Origin: Sedimenticola selenatireducens
Lineage (GTDB): Bacteria; Pseudomonadota; Gammaproteobacteria; Chromatiales; Chromatiaceae
DNA: 42,029 nt
Reading direction: 5' to 3'
Assembly: GCF_007625115.1 (NCBI RefSeq)
Contig: NZ_VMNH01000021.1
Location: 1 to 42,029, forward strand
The stretch's first letter is position 1. Every line of letters begins with the position of its first letter. The notes under the pieces were generated by a model. It was given only the letters and a program-made list of their open reading frames with translations. It did no database searches and was not told where the DNA came from. Made by a program: the position numbers and the translations under genes. Of the stretch, positions 25,575-37,179 are shown piece by piece.

Positions 25575-25821
25575 TATAATACCGTTAGTTAGGTTGTCTT
25601 TATGTGTGTGTCTTGCGGGACTGTTGCAAACAGGAAGCATAGCCGTTGACTATTAGGACTTCAACTGGAAAGCGCGCTATAGGGATGAACCTGATTGCCT
25701 TGTTGTTGTCTTCACGGAATCATATTGAGTATGTAATACTCGAGACAGCAAGAATTGCCATGCTGGGCCTTCGAAGTAAGGCGGCGCTTAATTTAGAGAA
25801 TTGATTGAGGAGATTTATCCA

Positions 25822-27540
25822 TTGAGTTATCGAATCGACCACAGTGTGCCACAGCTTGTTCCTCCTAAGATCTTGTTGTTGGATTGGCATGCAACACTGG
25901 TTGATTCTTTGGATGCGATGTACCTTGCCATTGATGATCTATTGCCTCAGTTCGAAGCGTTGGGGTTATTAAACCGCCTGGCTCCTGAGGAGTTGAGTAA
26001 GACACCCGATGATCGGAAGCTGGTCCGCTTCGTTCGTATCTTCAGACGCTTGCATCCGAAAATTCGGGCGGAACGGCGCGTTTCCCGCACCGATATTTTT
26101 GATGCCTTATTTGGTCCGGATTTGGAAGCCATATCCATTGCCCACAAGGCATTCAATAAGTGCTATCGGGATCATTATGGTGCTGTAGCCCCTTTTGAAG
26201 AAGGCATGCGTGAGCGTCTACAGTTTTTGCGAAAATTAGGCATAAAACTGGGCGTGCCAACCAACCGCAGTCGAGAGTTTCTTGGGCATGAGATGAGAAG
26301 CCTGGAAGGTGGCAGTTGGATTGATCTTTTTGATACCACGGTGTGTGGTGATGAGGTGAATCATCATAAACCGGCTCCCGATGTATTGCTGAAATCAATC
26401 GCTAATTTAAAGGCGACACCGGGTCCTGATGTGTGGTATCTGGGTGATAGTCGAACCGATACCATAGCGGCAAAAGAAGCGGGTATTACAAGCATTTTCT
26501 ATAACGGCGCAATGTGGGAGTGGGATTGGATAGAGCGGATTTTTCCCCGCACTCAACAGCATCCGCATAAACCCGATGCGGTCGTTGATGATCTCGATTC
26601 ATTGCTGGATTTGATTCAAAAAATAGACGGGCCTGAAAGGGCCGAGATTTGGGCAGAGCGTCCTGAGCGTGCTCCGGCAAGACGCAAGCCACCTGCACGC
26701 ATTGAACCTGACTGGCATCCGGCCGTCGTTGAGTTAACTGCGCCTATATTTTTATTGTTTGACTGGCACGCCACCTTGGTGGACACCCTGGATGCCATGT
26801 ACCACGCTGTAGACGATATGCTGCCAGAACTTGACACGTTAGGACTTGCGGAAAGACTGGTAGATCCCTCTCAGAGTAAAACCGTTGAAGATGCCAAGCT
26901 GGTGGAGCATGTACGTGACTACCACCAGTTGCACCCTAAAATTAAGGCGGACCGAAAAATATCGCGGACCGATATTTTCGAAGTGCTTTTTGGGGCTGAT
27001 GAAGAGGCAAAACAGATCGCCCATGCGGCGTTTAATCGGCACTATAGAAATCACTACGGCGCAGTCTATCCCTTTGAGCCTGGAGTAAAGGATATGCTCA
27101 TTGGATTGCGTGCACTCGGTTTAAAATTGGGCGTGCTAACGAATCGTGATCGTGAGTTTTTTCAGCATGAGCTGGCTGCGGTTGAAGGAACGGGCTGGGC
27201 TGACCTGTTTGATACCACCGTTTGCGGAGATGATACAGCGTTGCGAAAACCCCACGCTGATCCCATTCTCAAGGCACTGGAGAATTTGCACTTCTTGCCT
27301 GGGCCTGAAATCTGGTATATCGGGGATAGCACCACAGATACCATTGCGGCCAAGAAAGCTGGAGTGACAAGTGTTTTCTTCAATGGGGCCCAGTGGGATC
27401 AAAAGTGGCTGGATAAGATCTTTCCAGGAACAGAGCGCCATCCCCATAAACCCGATGTGGTGGTGAATGATTTTGGTGAGTTATGGGCCCTTACCTTAGC
27501 CTGTCGTGCCGCCCGACCCAGGATAGGGTGGAGTATTTAA
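25822..27540 (+). CDS. Tandem two-domain HAD-superfamily hydrolase
   Basis: One 572-residue chain contains two clearly homologous HAD domains, about residues 10-280 and 305-570. Both carry the rare motif I DWHATLVD (nucleophiles D21 and D314, with histidine where the second aspartate usually is). Both also carry motif II threonine (LGVPTNRSREF / LGVLTNRDREF), motif III lysine (HHKPAPD / LRKPHADP) and motif IV (YLGDSRTDTIAAK / YIGDSTTDTIAAK). A proline/arginine-rich linker (ERAPARRKPPARIEP) joins them. TTG 25822 is the preferred start, with TTGAGGAG about ten bases upstream. Both halves look catalytically complete. The substrate is unknown. Confidence 0.85.
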   Translation: MSYRIDHSVPQLVPPKILLLDWHATLVDSLDAMYLAIDDLLPQFEALGLLNRLAPEELSKTPDDRKLVRFVRIFRRLHPKIRAERRVSRTDIFDALFGPDLEAISIAHKAFNKCYRDHYGAVAPFEEGMRERLQFLRKLGIKLGVPTNRSREFLGHEMRSLEGGSWIDLFDTTVCGDEVNHHKPAPDVLLKSIANLKATPGPDVWYLGDSRTDTIAAKEAGITSIFYNGAMWEWDWIERIFPRTQQHPHKPDAVVDDLDSLLDLIQKIDGPERAEIWAERPERAPARRKPPARIEPDWHPAVVELTAPIFLLFDWHATLVDTLDAMYHAVDDMLPELDTLGLAERLVDPSQSKTVEDAKLVEHVRDYHQLHPKIKADRKISRTDIFEVLFGADEEAKQIAHAAFNRHYRNHYGAVYPFEPGVKDMLIGLRALGLKLGVLTNRDREFFQHELAAVEGTGWADLFDTTVCGDDTALRKPHADPILKALENLHFLPGPEIWYIGDSTTDTIAAKKAGVTSVFFNGAQWDQKWLDKIFPGTERHPHKPDVVVNDFGELWALTLACRAARPRIGWSI

Positions 27541-29927: not shown

Positions 29928-30404
29928 CTATTCAATATCGAGTAGGGGTAGGGGAGCGCGGGCCTTTATTTGTGATAGCTGAATATTCGACTTGATGGAA
30001 GAGACCCCAGGCATTCTCATCAGATGCTCAGAGATAAAGCGCGAAAACTCTTGCAGGTTCTTTGCAATAACGCGCATTTCGTAATCACCATCACCTGTAA
30101 TCAATAAGCATTCCAGAATTTCAGGTCTTTCTTGAACGGCCTTCTCGAATGCCGCTGCAATGTTCTCCTGATGCTTCTCCAGTGTGATGTTAATCAGCGC
30201 AACCACATCCATACCCAGTGCCTGGGGATCCAGTATGGCCGAATAACCGCGTATCACGCCCTCGTTTTCAAGCTGTTGAAGCCTCCTGGCGCATTGAGAG
30301 GGCGAGAGATTAACGCGTTCTGACAACGCAACGTGCGAGAGGCGGGCATCCTCCTGCAGATGGTGAAGTATCAGTCGGTCGTACTTGTCGAGTTTGATGC
30401 TCAT
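29928..30404 (-). CDS. Lrp/AsnC-family regulator divergent from ipdC
   Basis: The 158-residue Lrp-type regulator has a winged helix (LDKYDRLILHHLQEDARLSH, then LSERVNLSPSQCARRL) and a RAM effector domain (LECLLITGDGDYEMRVIA near 100-117). The ATG at 30404 fits the usual N-terminus; the frame extends 30 codons upstream without homology. It is divergent from the decarboxylase gene. Lrp-type genes beside aromatic keto-acid decarboxylases typically respond to aromatic amino acids, so it is the likely regulator of ipdC. Confidence 0.9.
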   Translation of the reverse strand: MSIKLDKYDRLILHHLQEDARLSHVALSERVNLSPSQCARRLQQLENEGVIRGYSAILDPQALGMDVVALINITLEKHQENIAAAFEKAVQERPEILECLLITGDGDYEMRVIAKNLQEFSRFISEHLMRMPGVSSIKSNIQLSQIKARAPLPLLDIE

Positions 30405-30587
30405 GGGCTGATTCTTTGTTTTGTAAAGAGTATCTAAAGCGATAAAAGCGCAGTTAAATAGCAAAAAAATAAAATATATGCATGAATATAGCATATCTGG
30501 CTTATTTGGCTATGGATAACACCCGATAACGTCATGTCAGATCGACTATGCTAGCCTCCAAATTGAACCACTATTTTGGAGAGCATG
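30405..30587. promoter_or_regulatory. Divergent promoter region between lrp-type gene and ipdC
   Basis: This 183-base spacer has an AT-rich half beside the regulator and an ATAGC (30488-30492)/GCTAT (30509-30513) inverted repeat near the middle, a possible Lrp-type site. No unambiguous -35/-10 pair is visible. Confidence 0.4.
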
Positions 30588-32216
30588 ATGACACTGGCAG
30601 AGGCGTTACTGAACGGGTTGAAGCTGCATGGGGCAAAGGAGTTGTTCGGCATCCCCGGGGATTTTGCATTGCCTTTTTTCAAGGTCATTGAGCAGTCAGA
30701 GATTCTGCCGTTCTATACGTTGAGTCATGAACCGGGTGTTGGCTTCGCGGCTGATGCGGCGGCACGGGGAAGAGGATCACTCGGCGTTGCTGTAGTGACC
30801 TATGGTGCCGGGGCCTTCAATATGGTCAATAGCGTTGCCTGCGCCTATGCGGAGAAGTCTCCACTGGTGGTCATTTCGGGTGCACCGGGTATTTCTGAAC
30901 TGCAAGGCGATCTGTTGCTGCATCATCAGGTGAAGACACTGGGTTCGCAGTATGAGGTCTTTAAAGAGTTCACCTGTGATCAAGTGTTGCTGAATGATCC
31001 GTTGAAGGCACCCGAGCAAATTGCCCGGGTGTTACGCCGTTGTCTTGAAGAGTCCCGACCCGTCTATATCGAATTCCCGCGCGACTTGGTGAATGTACTC
31101 TGTGATCCGGTTCCTCAGTTACCCCCTACAATGGCCGATCCACAGGCACTGTCGGCCTGTGCGGATGAGATACTCAGCCGATTGTCGGCGGCTGAGAATC
31201 CTGTGATTCTGGCGGGTGTAGAAGTGCGCCGCTATGGGCTGGAAAATAAAGTAGCCGAACTCTCTCGTCGCTTGAAGCTGCCTGTAGCAACCAGTTTTAT
31301 GGGTAGAGGGCTTTTCTCAGATGCTGACTGTCAATTGATCGGCTCCTATATCGGCATGGCAGGCGATCAGGCCATTAGTAACACGGTGGAAACATCCGAC
31401 CAGTTGTTGATGTTGGGCGTCATTGTCTGTGATTCAAACTTTGGTGTTTCAGCCAAGCGATTGGATATCCGCCATACCATTAATGCCTCCGATCAAGAGG
31501 TGAAGGTGGGCTATCATCTTTATCAGCAACTCTCACTGACTGAACTGATTGATGAGTTGCTTTCCAAGACAACGCCCAATTCCCATCATGCTTCTCCAAT
31601 GAAGCCTAATTATCCGCGCGGCCTTGAGGCTGATGATAACCCAATTGTGCCAACCGATATTGCCCGGGCTGTTAATGATCTTTTTGATCAGCGTGGTGCC
31701 ATGCCCATTGCCTCGGATATTGGTGATTGCCTGTTTACCGCCATGGATATGGATAACACGCAACTGGTTGCGCCGGGCTACTACGCCACCATGGGGTTTG
31801 GTGTGCCTGCAGGATTGGGATTACAAGCCTCAACGGGTCAGCGTCCCCTCATTTTGGTTGGTGACGGCGCCTTTCAAATGACCGGTTGGGAGTTGGGCAA
31901 CTGCAGACGCTATGGCTGGGATCCAATTGTGCTGTTGTTCAATAACAGTTGCTGGGGCATGTTGGCTACGTTTCAACCGGAGAGTCGTTTCAATCAGCTG
32001 GATGACTGGCATTTTGCCGATATGATGGGTTCGATGGGCGGTGATGGTGTGCGTGTGCAGACCCGTGCAGAACTACAACAGGCGCTGAGCCAGGCTGTTG
32101 AGCGGCGCGGGCGCTTTCAGCTGATAGAGATCATGATGACCGCCGATGCGCGCAGCGCTACGCTACAACAGTTCGTTGAGGCACAGGGACGGCGTACGGG
32201 TATGCGCAAGGGTTAA
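30588..32216 (+). CDS. ipdC: Indolepyruvate/phenylpyruvate decarboxylase (ThDP-dependent)
   Basis: The 542-residue thiamin-diphosphate enzyme converts aromatic 2-keto acids to aldehydes. Visible motifs are the ThDP-activating glutamate E48 (LSHEPGVGFAAD), the HH dyad at H113-H114 (LLHHQVKTLG) found in pyruvate and indolepyruvate decarboxylases, and the GDG...N cofactor motif (LVGDGAFQMTGWELGN, later LLFNN). The pattern fits the Azospirillum-type IpdC/PpdC group, which makes indole-3-acetaldehyde or phenylacetaldehyde. The start is chosen at the second of two adjacent ATGs, six bases after GGAG; the first is at 30585. The last 198 bases are repeated downstream at 34165. Substrate preference cannot be read from sequence. 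Confidence 0.9.
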   Translation: MTLAEALLNGLKLHGAKELFGIPGDFALPFFKVIEQSEILPFYTLSHEPGVGFAADAAARGRGSLGVAVVTYGAGAFNMVNSVACAYAEKSPLVVISGAPGISELQGDLLLHHQVKTLGSQYEVFKEFTCDQVLLNDPLKAPEQIARVLRRCLEESRPVYIEFPRDLVNVLCDPVPQLPPTMADPQALSACADEILSRLSAAENPVILAGVEVRRYGLENKVAELSRRLKLPVATSFMGRGLFSDADCQLIGSYIGMAGDQAISNTVETSDQLLMLGVIVCDSNFGVSAKRLDIRHTINASDQEVKVGYHLYQQLSLTELIDELLSKTTPNSHHASPMKPNYPRGLEADDNPIVPTDIARAVNDLFDQRGAMPIASDIGDCLFTAMDMDNTQLVAPGYYATMGFGVPAGLGLQASTGQRPLILVGDGAFQMTGWELGNCRRYGWDPIVLLFNNSCWGMLATFQPESRFNQLDDWHFADMMGSMGGDGVRVQTRAELQQALSQAVERRGRFQLIEIMMTADARSATLQQFVEAQGRRTGMRKG

Positions 32217-32220
32217 AGGT
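32023..32220 (+). repeat. Direct repeat, copy 1 (ipdC 3' end)
   Basis: These 198 bases, the last 64 codons of ipdC plus four bases beyond its stop, recur without gaps at 34165-34362. I count about eight differences, six of them synonymous. Sequence on both outer sides is unrelated. Confidence 0.9.
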
Positions 32221-32336
32221 ACGAGTATCATAAGGGTCGCACTTAAATGGCACTAGCTTAATGCCGGGGTCCTGTTATTTTATGGCGGATTATTCTACAG
32301 CTGCGTTAGCTGCGTTATGTCATTGGATGAAACAGC

Positions 32337-32885
32337 ATGAATACAACTGAAGAAATGTGGAATAAGTATCACACCAATCTTCGCGCTTTCATAGGCAAGC
32401 GGGTCAACGATAAAGATGCGGCTGAAGATATTCTTCAGGATATCTTTGTTCGGGTTCATTCTCGGATTGATACCCTTGAAAACAGGAACAAGCTTGAAAG
32501 CTGGCTCTATCAAATAACAAGAAATGCGCTCATTGATTACTATCGTTCTCACAAGCCGCTGGAAGCATTACCGGAGTGGCTTGAACAACCGCAAGCCAAC
32601 AGGGAGGAGACTAACAGGCGGGAGTTATCGTCGTGTCTTGCCCCGATGATTCAGCAATTACCGGAAAAATACCGCCATGCGGTTCAGCTCTCTGCGATGG
32701 AAGGGAAGACCCAAAGTGAGATAGCGGAAAAAGAAAACATTTCACTGTCCGGGGCGAAGTCGCGCGTCCAACGGGGAAGAGCGCTGTTGAAAACCATGCT
32801 TTACGACTGCTGCACAGTAGAAATTAACGCGATGAACCAAATAGTTGATTACGACAAAAAAGAGGGCGATTGCAAATTCTGCTAA
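32337..32885 (+). CDS. sigZ: ECF sigma factor, SigZ-like, with cysteine-rich tail
   Basis: The 182-residue sigma-70 family ECF factor has region 2 at residues 10-75 (DAAEDILQDIFVRVHSRI, then SWLYQITRNALIDYYR) and region 4 at about 105-155 (LPEKYRHAVQLSAMEGKTQ, then SGAKSRVQRGRALL). It resembles the SigZ group. Beyond region 4, a tail carries C-C near residue 158 and ends D-C-K-F-C, with no anti-sigma gene next to it. An arsenite methyltransferase follows 101 bases downstream, so the sigma factor probably drives arsM. Thiol-based metalloid sensing through the tail is my inference. Confidence 0.88.
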   Translation: MNTTEEMWNKYHTNLRAFIGKRVNDKDAAEDILQDIFVRVHSRIDTLENRNKLESWLYQITRNALIDYYRSHKPLEALPEWLEQPQANREETNRRELSSCLAPMIQQLPEKYRHAVQLSAMEGKTQSEIAEKENISLSGAKSRVQRGRALLKTMLYDCCTVEINAMNQIVDYDKKEGDCKFC

Positions 32886-32986
32886 GAAGTTTTACTGATT
32901 TTGCGTCTTTTTCGTGATGTCTCCGTCTACCTGTGTAGGAAGCAGAAATCGTTCTGATTCAATTGTAATCATGAAAGGAGACACAG

Positions 32987-33892
32987 ATGAAACCACTCAA
33001 CACGGATCAAGTCCGCGAAGCGGTACGTAGCCACTATGGCAAAGTAGCGGAAGGCTGCTGCGGTGGGCCAGCCCCGAAAGAAACTGATGCCTGCTGCGTG
33101 GCAGATGCCGAGGCAAAAGTAGCCGGTGAAGACGGTTGTGGTTGCGACACTGCAACACCATCAAGTGATAACAACAGCGTACAAGGCGCGTGTTGCAGCG
33201 GCCCGGCGCTATCGCCGGATGAAACCTCAAAAGCACTTGGCTATTCATCAGGCGAGCTGGCTTCCTTGCCGGAAGGGGCGAATCTTGGCCTTGGTTGCGG
33301 CAATCCTCAAGCCATTGCCTCAATTAAACAGGGAGAGACCGTTCTTGATCTGGGAAGCGGCGCCGGAATTGATTGTTTTTTGGCGGCAAAGGCCACGGGT
33401 GATAAGGGCTTTGTGATCGGGGTGGACATGACGCCCGAAATGATCTCCAAAGCCAAGTTAAATGCCGAAAAGACCGGCGTGCAAAATGTGGAGTTTCGAC
33501 TGGGTGAGATCGAAAATCTTCCCGCAGCAGACAACAGTGTAGATGTCATTATCTCCAATTGTGTGATCAACCTGTCCCCGGAGAAGCGGAAGGTTTATTC
33601 GGAGGCCTTTCGTGTCCTGAAACCTGGTGGCCGTATCGCCGTCTCCGATATTGTTCTAACAGCGGCGTTGCCGGAAGCACTGCAAAATGACCTATTCCTT
33701 TACACCGGTTGTATGGCAGGGGCCAGTTCACTTCCAGACATTGAAGCCTATCTGAGTGATACGGGGTTTGGGAATATCCGCATCTCGCCTAAGGATGAAA
33801 GTCGTGACTTCATCCGCGAATGGGTTCCGGGCAGCAAAATAGCGGATTATGTGGTATCAGCTACAATCGAGGCAACTAAACCCATGGCATAG
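32987..33892 (+). CDS. arsM: Arsenite S-adenosylmethionine methyltransferase
   Basis: This 301-residue class I methyltransferase has the SAM motif [12 protein letters not shown] (119-130) and GVDMTPEMI (145-153). ArsM-specific cysteine contexts are C104 (LGLGCGNP), C192 (ISNCVINLS) and C242 ([10 protein letters not shown]). The N-terminal 75 residues hold an unusual set of further cysteines (C24-C25, C36-C37, C51, C53, C69-C70), which may bind arsenite. ArsM methylates As(III) to volatile or less retained species. An AAAGGAG site precedes the ATG. It is preceded by sigZ and followed by palindromic repeats. No arsR, arsC or efflux gene is nearby. Confidence 0.95.
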
Positions 33893-33903
33893 CCAACAAA
33901 AAA

Positions 33904-33915
33904 CGGGTCAGAGAA
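33904..33915 (+). repeat. 12-bp direct repeat flanking the palindromic element, left
   Basis: CGGGTCAGAGAA here recurs identically at 34103-34114, just beyond the other end of the palindromic element. It may be an insertion footprint, or the REP-like module may once have been split by the insertion. Confidence 0.6.
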
Positions 33916-33920
33916 GAATA

Positions 33921-34098
33921 GTACTTACTTAAGCAGATTCGTATCCAATGTAGGGTGGGTTAGGCGCGTTGTTTGCGCCGTAACCCACCAACGGTGCCGT
34001 CAGGCACACCTTAAATAAACGCCTTGTGTTGCTGCGCAACGCTTGGTGGGCTACGCAAAAAACGCTAACCCACCCTACATTTGAGCTTAAGTAAGTAC
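33921..34098. mobile_element. MITE-like palindromic element with 14-bp terminal inverted repeats
   Basis: The element is bounded by perfect inverted repeats GTACTTACTTAAGC (33921-33934) and GCTTAAGTAAGTAC (34085-34098). A second, inner pair, TGTAGGGTGGGTTAG (33949-33963) and CTAACCCACCCTACA (34065-34079), is also perfect. It encodes no credible protein. The GTAGGGTGGG core recurs at 35510, so it belongs to a dispersed family. The structure suggests a non-autonomous element mobilised in trans. Confidence 0.75.
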
Positions 34099-34103
34099 CA
34101 TTC

Positions 34104-34153
34104 GGGTCAGAGAACAATTAACTCTAATATTGGCGACAATTGTTCTCTGGCCC
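34104..34153. repeat. REP-like hairpin, possible RAYT substrate
   Basis: GGGTCAGAGAACAATT (34104-34119) faces AATTGTTCTCTGGCCC (34138-34153): 16-bp arms with one mismatch around an 18-base loop. Such GGGTCAGAG palindromes recall elements moved by REP-associated tyrosine transposases. No transposase gene is in the window. Confidence 0.6.
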
Positions 34154-34164
34154 GGATTGCTATG

Positions 34165-34362
34165 TGATGGGTTCAATGGGCGGTGATGGTGTGCGTGTGC
34201 AGACCCGTGCAGAACTACAACAGGCACTGAGTCAGGCTGTTGAGCGGCGAGGGTGCTTTCAGCTGATAGAGATCATGACGACCGCCGATGCGCGCAGCGC
34301 TACGCTACAACAGTTCGTTGAGGCACAGGGCCGGCGTACGGGTATGCGTAAGGGTTAAAGGT
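34165..34362 (+). pseudogene. ipdC: ipdC 3'-end fragment (direct repeat copy 2)
   Basis: These 198 bases repeat the end of ipdC at 32023-32220 with about eight substitutions and no gaps. The frame is open (stop at 34356-34358) and encodes the last 64 residues. However, there is no start, cofactor site or ribosome binding site, so it is a remnant. Six of the eight changes are synonymous, so the divergence arose mainly while at least one copy was under protein-level selection. Together with copy 1 it brackets sigZ, arsM and the palindromic element. Confidence 0.9.
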
Positions 34363-34575
34363 GCAAAGGTTCAGATCGTTTCTGACACAAGGCTGCTATT
34401 AGAAAAATCTAGGTGCTGGTTAAGAAACATCCAAAAGCGGCCGCTTACTCCTGCACCGGCTTGTACGTAGAAAATAAATCTGCCCTTTTTAATTCATGTG
34501 CAAACAACACAAAGTGTCAGGTAATTTTACAGGTCGGCTGAAGGAACACTAAATAAGTCGTTGATTTATATTGAA

Positions 34576-34591
34576 TGGCATCATAATTGCA
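34576..34591 (+). promoter_or_regulatory. Sigma-54-type promoter of the TSP_C-like gene
   Basis: TGGCATCATAATTGCA matches the sigma-54 consensus TGGCACG-N4-TTGCA with exact GG-to-GC spacing (GG at 34577-34578, GC at 34589-34590). Transcription would begin near 34602, giving an untranslated leader of about 50 bases to the ATG at 34653. Confidence 0.7.
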
Positions 34592-34652
34592 ATCCTCGTA
34601 AAGTGTGATATCGACGGATTTATTTCAAGAATTCTTTAAGGAAGTAAAGACT

Positions 34653-35441
34653 ATGCTAACCCACATGAAAATAATAACCGCTGTCGGATTGATGAGTATT
34701 GCAGGATCTGTTTTTGCCGTTCCGACACCCATCGACCTGAATACCTTCCAGCAGGAGGGGCCTCTGGGCAATGGCAATTGGGTGGTATCGGGTGACGGAA
34801 ACAGTGTACTGCAAACAATCAACGGCAATCCTACAGCCTTTGTAAGCCCTGGGAACTTTTTCAATACGCAATTCCAGGGATCATTTTCCGCCGCCAACGA
34901 CGGGGATGATGACTACATGGGCTTTGTGTTTGGTTTTGATGCGAATGATACAACACCATTTTTCCTGTTTGACTGGAAACAGGGCCAGCAGTCGGGCTCC
35001 GCGCCTGGATTCTACCTCTCCGAGGTGTCTGGAGGTTTGAACGCAATTCCGTTCGGAAACCACCATCTGGACGCGACCGGTTACGATGTACTGGCCACCA
35101 ACCTGGGAACTGGCTGGGTGGATAACGTTATTTACGACTTTACGTTGGAATACACTGCATCCCTGATCAAGATCGACATCTCCGGAGGCAGTTTCGGGAC
35201 CGGTACCAACATCTTCAACTACGCTACGTCCGGCAACACCACGGGCCGCTTTGGATTCTACAACTTCTCCCAGTCTCAGGTTGCTTACCAGGGATTCACC
35301 GAGACGGTTGCCCCCACATTCTGTGAGCTGAATCCGACAGACCCCCAATGTACTGGTGCACAGGTACCCGTACCGGTACCGCTCAGTCTTATAGGTCTTG
35401 GCCTTGGCCTGCTGGGATTGTCCCGCCGGATTAAAAGGTAA
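34653..35441 (+). CDS. Secreted thrombospondin-C-like protein with PEP-CTERM-like tail
   Basis: This 262-residue exported protein has a signal peptide (MKIITAVGLMSIAGSVFA). Next comes a domain with DDDYMGFVFGFDANDT and FFLFDWKQGQQSG, strongly reminiscent of the thrombospondin C-terminal lectin-like (TSP_C) fold. The tail, VPVPVPLSLIGLGLGLLGL then SRRIKR, has the PEP-CTERM plan of short motif, one membrane helix and basic end, although the motif glutamate is valine here. Such proteins are processed by exosortase and linked to the cell surface or extracellular polysaccharide. AAGGAAG lies eight bases before the ATG. A sigma-54 promoter precedes it and a strong terminator follows, so it is a single-gene unit. 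Confidence 0.85.
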   Translation: MLTHMKIITAVGLMSIAGSVFAVPTPIDLNTFQQEGPLGNGNWVVSGDGNSVLQTINGNPTAFVSPGNFFNTQFQGSFSAANDGDDDYMGFVFGFDANDTTPFFLFDWKQGQQSGSAPGFYLSEVSGGLNAIPFGNHHLDATGYDVLATNLGTGWVDNVIYDFTLEYTASLIKIDISGGSFGTGTNIFNYATSGNTTGRFGFYNFSQSQVAYQGFTETVAPTFCELNPTDPQCTGAQVPVPVPLSLIGLGLGLLGLSRRIKR

Positions 35442-35447
35442 TCACCG

Positions 35448-35474
35448 GGGGGGCTACACAGCCCCCCTTTTTTT
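35448..35474 (+). terminator. Intrinsic terminator after the TSP_C-like gene
   Basis: GGGGGGCT-ACAC-AGCCCCCC is a perfect 8-bp GC-rich stem followed by seven T. Confidence 0.92.
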
Positions 35475-35509
35475 GTTGCGAAAGCAAACCGACAGACTTA
35501 CTCAGCCAG

Positions 35510-35587
35510 GTAGGGTGGGCACGTTTTTTGTGCCCACGGGTATGCGCCATAATTATCGCGTGGGCACACACGGCGTGCCCACCCTAC
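35510..35587. repeat. GTAGGGTGGG palindromic repeat, second copy
   Basis: Outer perfect arms GTAGGGTGGGCACG (35510-35523) and CGTGCCCACCCTAC (35574-35587) enclose a second inverted pair GTGCCCACG (35530-35538)/CGTGGGCAC (35559-35567). The core GTAGGGTGGG is shared with the element at 33949-34079, but the 14-bp outer repeats of that element are absent. Confidence 0.7.
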
Positions 35588-35747
35588 CGATCTGGGTTGA
35601 GTGGCAGCTATTGGATGGTTTCTGCCGAACAAACTGAATGACTCAATGGTCGCTTTTGGCAACCAAACGAGAAAGTAACACCGCAATCAGCAGTAAACAA
35701 AATACACTCGACAGTAACTGCCAGATCCAGGCACAAGGTACTGTACC

Positions 35748-36674
35748 TTAAAGCACCTTATCCCAGCTTTCACTGGTCAGATCGGCGCCAAATATATGTT
35801 CATCCCACGCCTTGGTGCAGGTGAAACCCGATTTGGTATAGAGCTTTCGTGCCTGAGTAAGGCAGGAGCAGGTCCAGAGCGTCATCTTCTTGTATCCACA
35901 TTGGCGACAGAAGTCGATGCACTGTTGAATCAGTTGTCGGCCAATCTGCATGCCGCGAAATTCGGGTTCGACTAACAGGGCACGCAGCCGAGCTGTTTCA
36001 GTATCTTCTTTGACAGCAAATATACTGCCAGCGAATCGGCCATCTACTTCAGCAATCCAACCTCGTTCGCAGGTTTCATCATAGTTGTTGGCAAACGATG
36101 CAAGCACTTCCAGCACGGTACGCTCAAAACTTTTATCCCATTGATATTCTGTGGCGTAGAGCACCGCGTGACGATTGATTACTGTGCTGATATCACCCAG
36201 TTGTAGGGGGCGTATCAGTACAGAGCGCTTTCGTGTCGGCTCAAGCAGGTCCATTATGCGATGCATGGCGTCTACCAGTTCGCGGCGTTGATGCATGAGC
36301 AAGGGCTTAAGCAGTTGATCCAGATTGTCCCGGGCAAGTCCATCCAGCGCTTGTAATGTTGTCAGTCCGGCGGGGGACAGCGTAAGCCGTTTTCTGCGTC
36401 GATCCGTTGGATCTGTTGTTTTCTGCAACAGGCTCTGTCTGAGCAGTTTAGCCAGTATTCGACTGACATAGCCGGGATCCATTCTCAGGTAGTCCGCAAG
36501 CGTGGTGGCGGTCAATGTGCTCTCTTTTGCCACCTCAAACAGGACGCGAATCTCTGGGAGATTAAGTGCTTGTCCCAAGAACCCTTCATCCAGGATACCT
36601 ATGTGACGGGTATAGAATCGATTAAAGGCACGTATCTGATCAATTTCGTCCAGCGAGTCTGCGATTTGTTTCAT
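35748..36674 (-). CDS. MarR-type regulator fused to GNAT acetyltransferase
   Basis: The 308-residue fusion has a MarR winged helix at about residues 20-140 (TLTATTLADYLRMDPGYVSR, then KTTDPTDRRRKRLTLSPAG) and a GNAT acetyltransferase at about 155-300 (the acetyl-CoA loop is LLVEPEFRGMQIGRQLIQQC near 235). Such fusions are known; the acetylation target is unknown. I start at 36674 because a 14-bp palindrome and a plausible promoter lie immediately upstream, while the longer frame to 36713 would include them. Confidence 0.9.
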   Translation of the reverse strand: MKQIADSLDEIDQIRAFNRFYTRHIGILDEGFLGQALNLPEIRVLFEVAKESTLTATTLADYLRMDPGYVSRILAKLLRQSLLQKTTDPTDRRRKRLTLSPAGLTTLQALDGLARDNLDQLLKPLLMHQRRELVDAMHRIMDLLEPTRKRSVLIRPLQLGDISTVINRHAVLYATEYQWDKSFERTVLEVLASFANNYDETCERGWIAEVDGRFAGSIFAVKEDTETARLRALLVEPEFRGMQIGRQLIQQCIDFCRQCGYKKMTLWTCSCLTQARKLYTKSGFTCTKAWDEHIFGADLTSESWDKVL

Positions 36675-36694
36675 GACGACCACCCATGATGCTC

Positions 36695-36708
36695 TATTGC
36701 ATGCAATA
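36695..36708. promoter_or_regulatory. MarR-type palindromic operator
   Basis: TATTGCATGCAATA is a perfect 14-bp palindrome starting 21 bases before the MarR-GNAT start codon. It overlaps the predicted -10 box, an arrangement typical of MarR autorepression. Confidence 0.65.
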
Positions 36709-36734
36709 TGCAACTTATTAATTGACTATGTCAA
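36705..36734 (-). promoter_or_regulatory. Predicted sigma-70 promoter of the MarR-GNAT gene
   Basis: On the minus strand, TTGACA (36729-36734) and CATATT (36705-36710) are separated by 18 bases. The -35 box lies within a second small dyad, TTGAC-TAT-GTCAA. Spacing and boxes are plausible, not proven. Confidence 0.5.
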
Positions 36735-36789
36735 CTAATATTGAATGAAAAATAATCCATAGGGTGGAAATAGATGCGGATGTGGCTAT

Positions 36790-37179
36790 CTAGTTAAAGC
36801 TGAAGCGGCCAATGATGGGATACCGGAATTCAGCGCCAGCCATGGCTTTGGCCAATCCTACGATACCCAATAGGACCAGTGTGGAGTGGACGGTGGTAAA
36901 ATAGAGAATTAATACCATCCATGTATTCGCGCTTTGATAACCCCCAAGCCAGAGTATGGCCAGGTTGGCTATAACTAATAAAATGCCGCCAATAATGCTC
37001 GCCACAAAGGTTTGTTCAAGATGACTGCGGGCAAGCGCTGAGGCTGTGGTGCGGTGTTTGAAATAGAGGTAAGTCAGCCAGGCAAAACAGACCCCTGGAA
37101 GCAGGAGCAAGTTAGCCAGGAACAATCCCTCTGCCATAACGGCAAGCTGTGTGTCATTGTTATCAATGGTTTCATTCAT
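36790..37179 (-). CDS. Small four-helix membrane protein, DUF4870-like
   Basis: The 129-residue protein has about four hydrophobic segments, with FLANLLLLPGVCFAWLTYLY near residue 24, IIGGILLVIANLAILWLGG near 67, and a C-terminal end EFRYPIIGRFSF. The last motif and the helix layout recall DUF4870/Tic20-like proteins, but the match is weak. The start at 37179 is an in-frame ATG seven codons inside the longest frame. It diverges from the HTH-ferredoxin-reductase gene. Confidence 0.65.
   Translation of the reverse strand: MNETIDNNDTQLAVMAEGLFLANLLLLPGVCFAWLTYLYFKHRTTASALARSHLEQTFVASIIGGILLVIANLAILWLGGYQSANTWMVLILYFTTVHSTLVLLGIVGLAKAMAGAEFRYPIIGRFSFN

What the first reader, a model, noticed from the sequence alone, without database searches (positions are those of the whole stretch)
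32023..34362. sigZ-arsM bracketed by a direct repeat of the ipdC 3' end
The last 198 bases of ipdC recur without gaps 2142 bases downstream, with about eight differences, six of them synonymous. Between the copies lie the sigma factor, arsM and palindromic elements. This is the pattern expected if a DNA circle or imported segment carrying an ipdC 3' fragment integrated by single crossover or site-specific insertion into ipdC, leaving it intact. The synonymous bias suggests that the donor fragment came from a diverged, functional ipdC, not a fresh duplication. No integrase is visible.
Basis: partly seen in the sequence, partly recalled or inferred. Interest (0 to 1): 0.75.

Follow-up and report, generated by a model that had tools for sequence, protein, structure and literature searches.

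The report
Arsenic-gene insert bracketed by gene-end copies
In a bacterium of the genus Sedimenticola, a small self-contained arsenic-methylation module sits just behind the ipdC gene, followed by a second, decaying copy of ipdC's last 200 bases; this looks like the scar of imported DNA that recombined at the gene's end without a dedicated mobile element.

Summary
The repeat is real: 32020-32220 recurs at 34162-34362, 9 differences in 201 nt (8 in 198, 6 synonymous), with no other match in the genome. The genus is Sedimenticola. Of 9 genus genomes 8 have ipdC: in 5 it meets a MarR-GNAT gene tail to tail (29-bp overlap to 394-bp gap); in 1 MarR-GNAT was not found; in 1 the slot holds a type III restriction-modification island without a detected ipdC fragment; this genome holds 3.5 kb: sigZ-arsM, a hairpin split by a 188-bp MITE, the ipdC fragment and a PEP-CTERM-like gene. 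Insertion at ipdC's end is supported. Both amino-acid changes lie in copy 2 at residues kept in relatives, so copy 2 is decaying. The synonymous excess favours a diverged functional donor only weakly. No integrase-sized gene besides sigZ and arsM lies between the copies. Best reading: homology-anchored, single-crossover import, as made experimentally in E. coli; local duplication and an e14/icd-like remnant are rivals. Bonus: a conserved SigZ-type promoter block between sigZ and arsM, found in 7 of 142 family genomes, once each, always before arsM. Known kind; moderate interest.

The parts
30585..32216 (+). ipdC, indolepyruvate/phenylpyruvate decarboxylase, intact, 543 aa
   Evidence: TIGR03394 861.6 bits against cut-off 554.5; 82-91% identical to 7 congeners
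32020..32220 (+). copy 1 of the direct repeat: last 197 nt of ipdC plus 4 nt
32337..32885 (+). sigZ, ECF sigma factor with Cys-containing C-terminal tail
   Evidence: NF007215 225.7 bits (cut-off 212), TIGR02959 209.7 (cut-off 168.65); tails
32902..32929 (+). conserved SigZ-type promoter-like block TGCGTCYTTTT-N8-YTCCGTCTA upstream of arsM
32987..33892 (+). arsM, arsenite methyltransferase with Cys-rich N-terminal region
   Evidence: NF008823 344.3 bits against cut-off 263
33905..33915 (.). left copy of the 11-bp target duplication GGGTCAGAGAA (outer arm of the hairpin)
33916..34103 (.). 188-bp MITE with terminal inverted repeats; 5 further near-full copies and many partial ones in the genome
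34104..34153 (.). rest of the hairpin (right target-duplication copy at 34104-34114); with the MITE left out, 16 outer pairs, -27.4 kcal/mol
34162..34362 (+). copy 2 of the direct repeat: decaying ipdC 3' fragment
34653..35441 (+). PEP-CTERM-like secreted protein with thrombospondin C-terminal-like match
   Evidence: PF05735 E 1.5e-15; the PEP-CTERM label is by inspection of the C terminus, and no NCBIfam family matched
35500..35597 (.). repeated palindromic (REP-like) element present at many places in the genome
35748..36713 (-). MarR-GNAT gene, the usual tail-to-tail neighbour of ipdC in the genus

Best explanation
A piece of DNA from a related strain, carrying an ipdC 3' end followed by sigZ-arsM and a hairpin, was taken up and integrated by ordinary homologous recombination anchored in the last ~200 bp of ipdC. 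Either its ends were joined into a circle that went in by a single crossover, or one end was anchored by homology and the other joined illegitimately near the hairpin. The intact gene was completed with a donor end (copy 1, wholly or partly) and the recipient's own end was left behind as copy 2, with its old downstream DNA (PEP-CTERM-like gene, MarR-GNAT gene). Copy 2 then began to decay, and a MITE at some time went into the hairpin. Shown: the repeat, the tail-to-tail state in relatives, which copy carries the replacements, that the MITE is younger than the hairpin, and that no integrase-sized gene other than sigZ and arsM lies between the copies. Inferred: import rather than local duplication, circle or linear form, donor identity, and which flank is native.
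For: Tail-to-tail ipdC/MarR-GNAT in 5 of 8 ipdC-bearing genus genomes. The same slot holds an unrelated type III R-M/helicase island in G001, so it accepts cargo. arsM is patchy (5 of 9 genus genomes at E 1e-40) and the sigZ-arsM pair sits in different neighbourhoods, as expected of transferred DNA. Repeat homology stops 4 nt past the stop codon, as expected where coding sequence is alike and flanks differ. dS between copies 0.14 against 2.08 and 1.82 to two congeners, with a synonymous excess, fits a donor about 4% diverged. E. coli precedent: 56 of 60 clones gave the PCR product diagnostic of a gene-end duplication, the 14 sequenced had 109-950 bp duplications, ascribed by the authors to single crossover with a circle lacking part of its homology (PMC3240628, one section and passages read).
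Against: No donor-type arrangement (ipdC-sigZ-arsM without the fragment) and no precise empty site (ipdC-PEP-CTERM) is in the genomes searched; no same-species genome is held. Neither downstream flank aligns to relatives, so which copy is native is not shown. Simple duplication is only marginally disfavoured by the counts, is not disfavoured by the share of changes on copy 1 (P 0.24 with 3 of 8), and is favoured at two of four omega values if the edge difference is counted. The left joint shows little microhomology by eye. In the cited E. coli work true homology-facilitated illegitimate recombination was very rare (4 of 60 clones).
Confidence: 0.52

Rival explanations
1. Local duplication: a repair or replication error duplicated the ipdC 3' end around sigZ-arsM (a very long target duplication, or a tandem duplication with deletion at the hairpin), and copy 2 has decayed as a pseudogene since.
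For: Both amino-acid changes and the edge change are in copy 2, at residues kept in relatives, while the changes assignable to copy 1 (32084, 32090, 32207) are all synonymous: the pattern of one constrained and one unconstrained copy. The share of changes on copy 1 fits (P 0.24 for 3 or more of 8). The joint lies 8 nt from a strong hairpin.
Against: Equal-time decay predicts more replacements in copy 2: P of at least 6 synonymous of 8 is 0.036-0.046; if both undecided changes fell on copy 1 (5 of 8), P would be 0.014. Does not by itself explain where sigZ-arsM came from.
Confidence: 0.25
2. Remnant of an integrative element of the e14/icd type: a tyrosine integrase used the ipdC 3' end as attachment site, the element brought a replacement end (copy 1), the host end became copy 2, and the integrase was later lost.
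For: The anatomy is like e14 in icd: 165-bp displaced gene end, 12 nt exchanges, two amino-acid replacements (PMC11148124, passages).
Against: The only long ORFs between the copies are sigZ and arsM (family scans; the shorter ORFs were not scanned). G001's insertion in the same slot shows no ipdC fragment on the contig that carries MarR-GNAT. 0 of 5 further sigZ-arsM pairs have bracketing repeats of 40 nt or more (G017's is cut by a contig end).
Confidence: 0.13
3. The order was reversed: sigZ-arsM sat behind ipdC first, and a second import brought the ipdC fragment with the PEP-CTERM-like gene.
For: The PEP-CTERM-like gene is also absent from the slot in the relatives and has homologues at E 1e-20 in only 5 of 116 family genomes, own included.
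Against: Copy 2 carries the decayed residues, which a fresh functional donor end would not have on arrival; no strain with only one of the two cargoes was found.
Confidence: 0.07
4. Assembly artefact: a false join at the MITE or at the repeat.
For: The MITE is repeated genome-wide and copies of it touch contig starts (C7:1-146, C8:1-160, C3:5-121), so it breaks the assembly.
Against: Both sides of the MITE carry ipdC sequence and the neighbours expected from relatives (Lrp-ipdC left, MarR-GNAT right), and the two copies differ at 9 sites.
Confidence: 0.03

Closest known systems
Single-crossover insertion of circularised, end-trimmed DNA (seen beside homology-facilitated illegitimate recombination in E. 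coli, PMC3240628)
   Same: Insert flanked by a direct duplication of a gene end in the 109-950 bp range; no recombinase of its own in the insert.
   Different: There an experiment with a selected marker and a cloned piece of the recipient's gene; here a natural event with 4% diverged copies.
Sequential displacement of T6SS effector-immunity modules in Vibrio cholerae (PMC5361080, passages read)
   Same: A conserved gene part is proposed to anchor incoming cargo, and old 3' DNA is pushed downstream.
   Different: There effector-immunity modules in recurrent arrays; here a single case with metabolic cargo behind a gene that remains intact.
Prophage e14 in icd of E. coli K-12 (PMC11148124, passages read)
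   Same: Displaced gene 3' end (165 bp) with a few mostly silent changes on the far side of the insert.
   Different: e14 carries an integrase gene (intE) and phage genes; nothing like them lies between the copies here.
ArsM arsenite methyltransferases and SigZ ECF sigma factors
   Same: Both proteins pass the curated NCBIfam cut-offs.
   Different: They form one unit with a conserved promoter-like block in this family; no held paper has both terms 'SigZ' and 'arsenite methyltransferase'.

Membership tests
e14/icd-type integrative element | Gene 3' end restored by the element, displaced end on the far side | tested here: met
   ipdC ORF intact. The anatomy is met; that copy 1 came from an element is not shown
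e14/icd-type integrative element | Site-specific integrase carried in the insert | tested here: not met
   The only long ORFs between the copies are sigZ and arsM; shorter ORFs were not scanned
e14/icd-type integrative element | Same attachment site used by other elements in relatives | tested here: inconclusive
   G001 has a different island in the slot, with no ipdC fragment detected beside MarR-GNAT; a contig gap lies inside its mod gene
Single-crossover (homology-anchored) insertion | Direct repeat of the anchor flanking non-homologous cargo | tested here: met
Single-crossover (homology-anchored) insertion | Ancestral site without the cargo | tested here: inconclusive
   Tail-to-tail ipdC/MarR-GNAT in 5 of 8 genomes, but these also lack the PEP-CTERM-like gene; the exact empty site was not found
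Single-crossover (homology-anchored) insertion | Donor-type molecule (ipdC end joined to sigZ-arsM) in another strain | tested here: not met
   The 4 other arsM-bearing genus genomes have the pair on contigs other than ipdC's, and G017's neighbourhood shows no ipdC; no same-species genome is held, so this does not exclude a donor
SigZ (TIGR02959 / NF007215) | Score above curated cut-off | tested here: met
   209.7 against 168.65 and 225.7 against 212
ArsM (NF008823) | Score above curated cut-off | tested here: met
   344.3 against 263
IpdC (TIGR03394) | Score above curated cut-off | tested here: met
   861.6 against 554.5; TIGR03393 not met, 198.4 against 946
MITE | Short, non-coding, terminal inverted repeats, target duplication, many copies | tested here: met
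   188 bp, inverted ends, 11-bp duplication in the window; copies; duplications of about the same length visible by eye at L035 (10 of 11) and L036 (11 of 11), not clear at L034

The most novel reading that the evidence does not exclude
sigZ-promoter-arsM is a minimal, self-regulated travelling module: an ECF sigma factor with a Cys-containing tail that may itself sense arsenite and that serves essentially one promoter in the genome, moved between loci by host recombination at gene ends rather than by a transposon.
Probability: 0.25. Interest if true: 0.55.

Novelty: new member of a known kind. Interest (0 to 1): 0.36.

Why it matters
It is a clear natural scar of how small cargo can enter a genome at a gene's end, keep the gene intact, and do so with no visible mobile element: a route known mainly from laboratory systems. 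The conserved SigZ-type promoter block gives a direct, testable regulatory hypothesis for arsenite methylation in these bacteria, and the ipdC/MarR-GNAT slot has taken different cargo in two of the eight ipdC-bearing genus genomes.

Tried and rejected
Deciding the native copy from its downstream flank: neither flank aligns to the intergenic DNA of relatives (blastn word 7 of 32217-35747 against L009-L015). Search for more ipdC sequence left of copy 2: only short chance-like pieces between ipdC and 32217-34161 (best E 0.009, on the opposite strand). Bracketing repeats at other sigZ-arsM loci: of 10 non-own sigZ-like hits I opened 7 with flanks; 5 of these have the pair; no direct repeat of 40 nt or more brackets any of the 5; repeats in L082 and L084 lie elsewhere, and L083 (G017) is cut by a contig end. 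A class-wide arsM search at E 1e-105 found only the own gene among 369 genomes; the threshold was too strict to inform. Plasmid transfer: arsM relatives are on 63 plasmid records at E 1e-30; I opened 1 of the 63, from Sulfuricella, which has arsM and a sigma-factor gene 1.4 kb apart in a different ars cluster, not as a neighbouring pair. Y1 transposases as drivers of the hairpin: 4 matches in the own genome, none with GGGTC[A/G]GAG arms inside the fetched loci. Rfam: no match in 30000-36800. The generic promoter/terminator scan found no more than shuffles give. Script slips: the first polarity table had three relatives out of frame (corrected), and a motif filter missed most SigZ homologues (corrected). 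L015 (planctomycete) was left out of the slot counts.
Full report
Observation. The repeat is as described. Positions 32020-32220 and 34162-34362 match without gaps at 96% with spacing 2142, and in the 4.03-Mb own genome the 201-nt query hits only those two places. ipdC is intact and passes TIGR03394.

Genomic setting. In the genus search 8 of 9 genomes, own included, have ipdC, each once, and 7 of 9 have the MarR-GNAT gene at E 1e-60. In G002, G004, G006, G007 and G008 the two genes face each other tail to tail; from the stop coordinates the gaps are 118, 24, -29 (overlap), 394 and 38 bp (G004's MarR-GNAT is cut by the contig end). In G003 MarR-GNAT was not found and ipdC faces the next gene. 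G005 (90% complete) gave no match to either gene. G001 has ipdC 5.7 kb from a contig end, followed by a restriction gene (NF046055), a DNA-damage-inducible-protein-D gene (NF008573) and the first part of a type III methyltransferase; a second contig begins with the last part of the same methyltransferase profile (profile positions 4-471 on one contig, 658-982 on the other), then a helicase-like gene and MarR-GNAT. So the slot took a different island in another species, with no ipdC fragment detected on the MarR-GNAT contig (tblastn).

Anatomy of this insert. After the ipdC stop come sigZ, arsM, a hairpin, the ipdC fragment, a PEP-CTERM-like gene and a repeated palindrome, then MarR-GNAT. The hairpin is interrupted by a 188-bp element with inverted ends and an 11-bp direct duplication, GGGTCAGAGAA; five other near-full copies and many partial ones lie elsewhere in the genome. 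The MITE is therefore younger than the hairpin. With it left out, the 55-nt stretch folds with 16 outer pairs at -27.4 kcal/mol. The ipdC fragment starts 8 nt beyond the last pair.

Which copy is decaying. Eight homologous loci were aligned (L008 and L014 are the same genome, so seven genomes). Arg at 32112 is kept in all eight; Met at 32137 is kept in the nearest three and is Leu in the others; copy 2 has Cys and Thr. Copy 1 departs from the nearest three relatives at 32090 and 32207 and from two of three at 32084, all silently; copy 2 departs at 32033, 32112 and 32137; 32108 and 32189 are undecided. dS between copies is 0.14 and dN 0.014, against dS 2.08 and 1.82 (near saturation) to two congeners. 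If copy 2 had been free of constraint since a simple duplication, at least 6 synonymous of 8 has probability 0.036-0.046 over four omega values; a fragment functional for the whole divergence is favoured 1.7- to 10-fold, but counting the edge difference takes that to 0.16-3.75. A model functional for 80% of the time is the best of those tried at three of four omega values. The share of changes on copy 1 is compatible with simple duplication (P 0.24 for 3 or more of 8; 0.014 if it were 5).

Mechanism. The only long ORFs between the copies are sigZ and arsM (families; ORFs of 60-108 aa there were not scanned). A published E. coli experiment gives the expected product without an integrase: of 60 Lac-minus clones 56 gave the PCR product diagnostic of a duplication of part of the gene end, the 14 sequenced showed 109-950 bp, and the authors ascribe them to single crossover with a circle lacking part of its homology; only 4 of 60 were true homology-facilitated illegitimate recombination (PMC3240628, one section and passages read). 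The Vibrio T6SS arrays are explained by their authors with a kindred anchored mechanism (PMC5361080, passages read). The e14/icd case looks alike on sequence but has an integrase gene (PMC11148124, passages read). I rate homology-anchored import 0.52, local duplication 0.25, integrative remnant 0.13, reversed order 0.07, artefact 0.03.

The cargo. arsM occurs in 5 of 9 genus genomes at E 1e-40, and a sigZ-like gene in 11 of 146 family genomes at E 1e-25. In five further genomes (G001, G002, G006, G008, G017) sigZ and arsM are adjacent, in neighbourhoods unlike this one; only G001's and G006's look alike. Between the two genes lies a conserved block, TGCGTCYTTTT-N8-YTCCGTCTA, in all six pairs. 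Searched with one mismatch allowed in 142 family genomes (six of the nine genus genomes among them) it occurs in 7, once each and without mismatch, against none for the reversed control; all 7 sit just before arsM, six with sigZ next door and one (G091) without sigZ in the 1.06 kb up to its contig end. The pattern was made from six of these sites, so those matches are by construction; the single occurrence per genome and the seventh site are the informative parts. The SigZ tails of the window, G008 and G017 share DCC...DC..C; those of G001, G002 and G006 keep a CC and further cysteines near the end; four more distant SigZ-like proteins have other tails. Direct sensing of arsenite is a guess from this. 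No held paper has both 'SigZ' and 'arsenite methyltransferase', and none has all of 'arsM', 'extracytoplasmic function sigma factor', 'arsenic' and 'methylation'; most subscription papers are not held.

Limits. No same-species genome is held, neither flank aligns to relatives, and the exact empty site and donor were not found.

Noticed in passing
32902-32929, and L119-L125: A conserved promoter-like block between sigZ and arsM, once per genome in 7 of 142 family genomes and always just before arsM: a likely single-target SigZ promoter.
   Followed up: partly
32800-32882, and SigZ tails in L022-L027: SigZ proteins paired with arsM end in a cysteine-containing tail (DCC...DC..C in the window), a possible metalloid-sensing element.
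   Followed up: partly
L120 (G091): arsM with the conserved promoter block but no sigZ in the 1.06 kb upstream, where the contig ends.
   Followed up: partly
33916-34103: 188-bp MITE with inverted ends and an 11-bp target duplication, in several copies next to hairpin arms of the GGGTCNGAG or CTCTCTGACCC type; some copies at contig starts.
   Followed up: partly
L010 5405-6466 (- strand): An integron integrase gene (TIGR02249, 412.6 bits) right after the cdR homologue, three genes beyond ipdC, in G008.
   Followed up: no
L105 and L106 (G001): Type III restriction-modification island with dinD-like and helicase-like genes in the same ipdC/MarR-GNAT slot.
   Followed up: partly
25801-27540: A 579-aa protein that by eye looks like two tandem HAD-type hydrolase halves; its relative in L009 is 92% identical over nearly the whole length.
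   Followed up: no
35500-35597: A palindromic element of about 90 bp repeated at many places in the genome.
   Followed up: no
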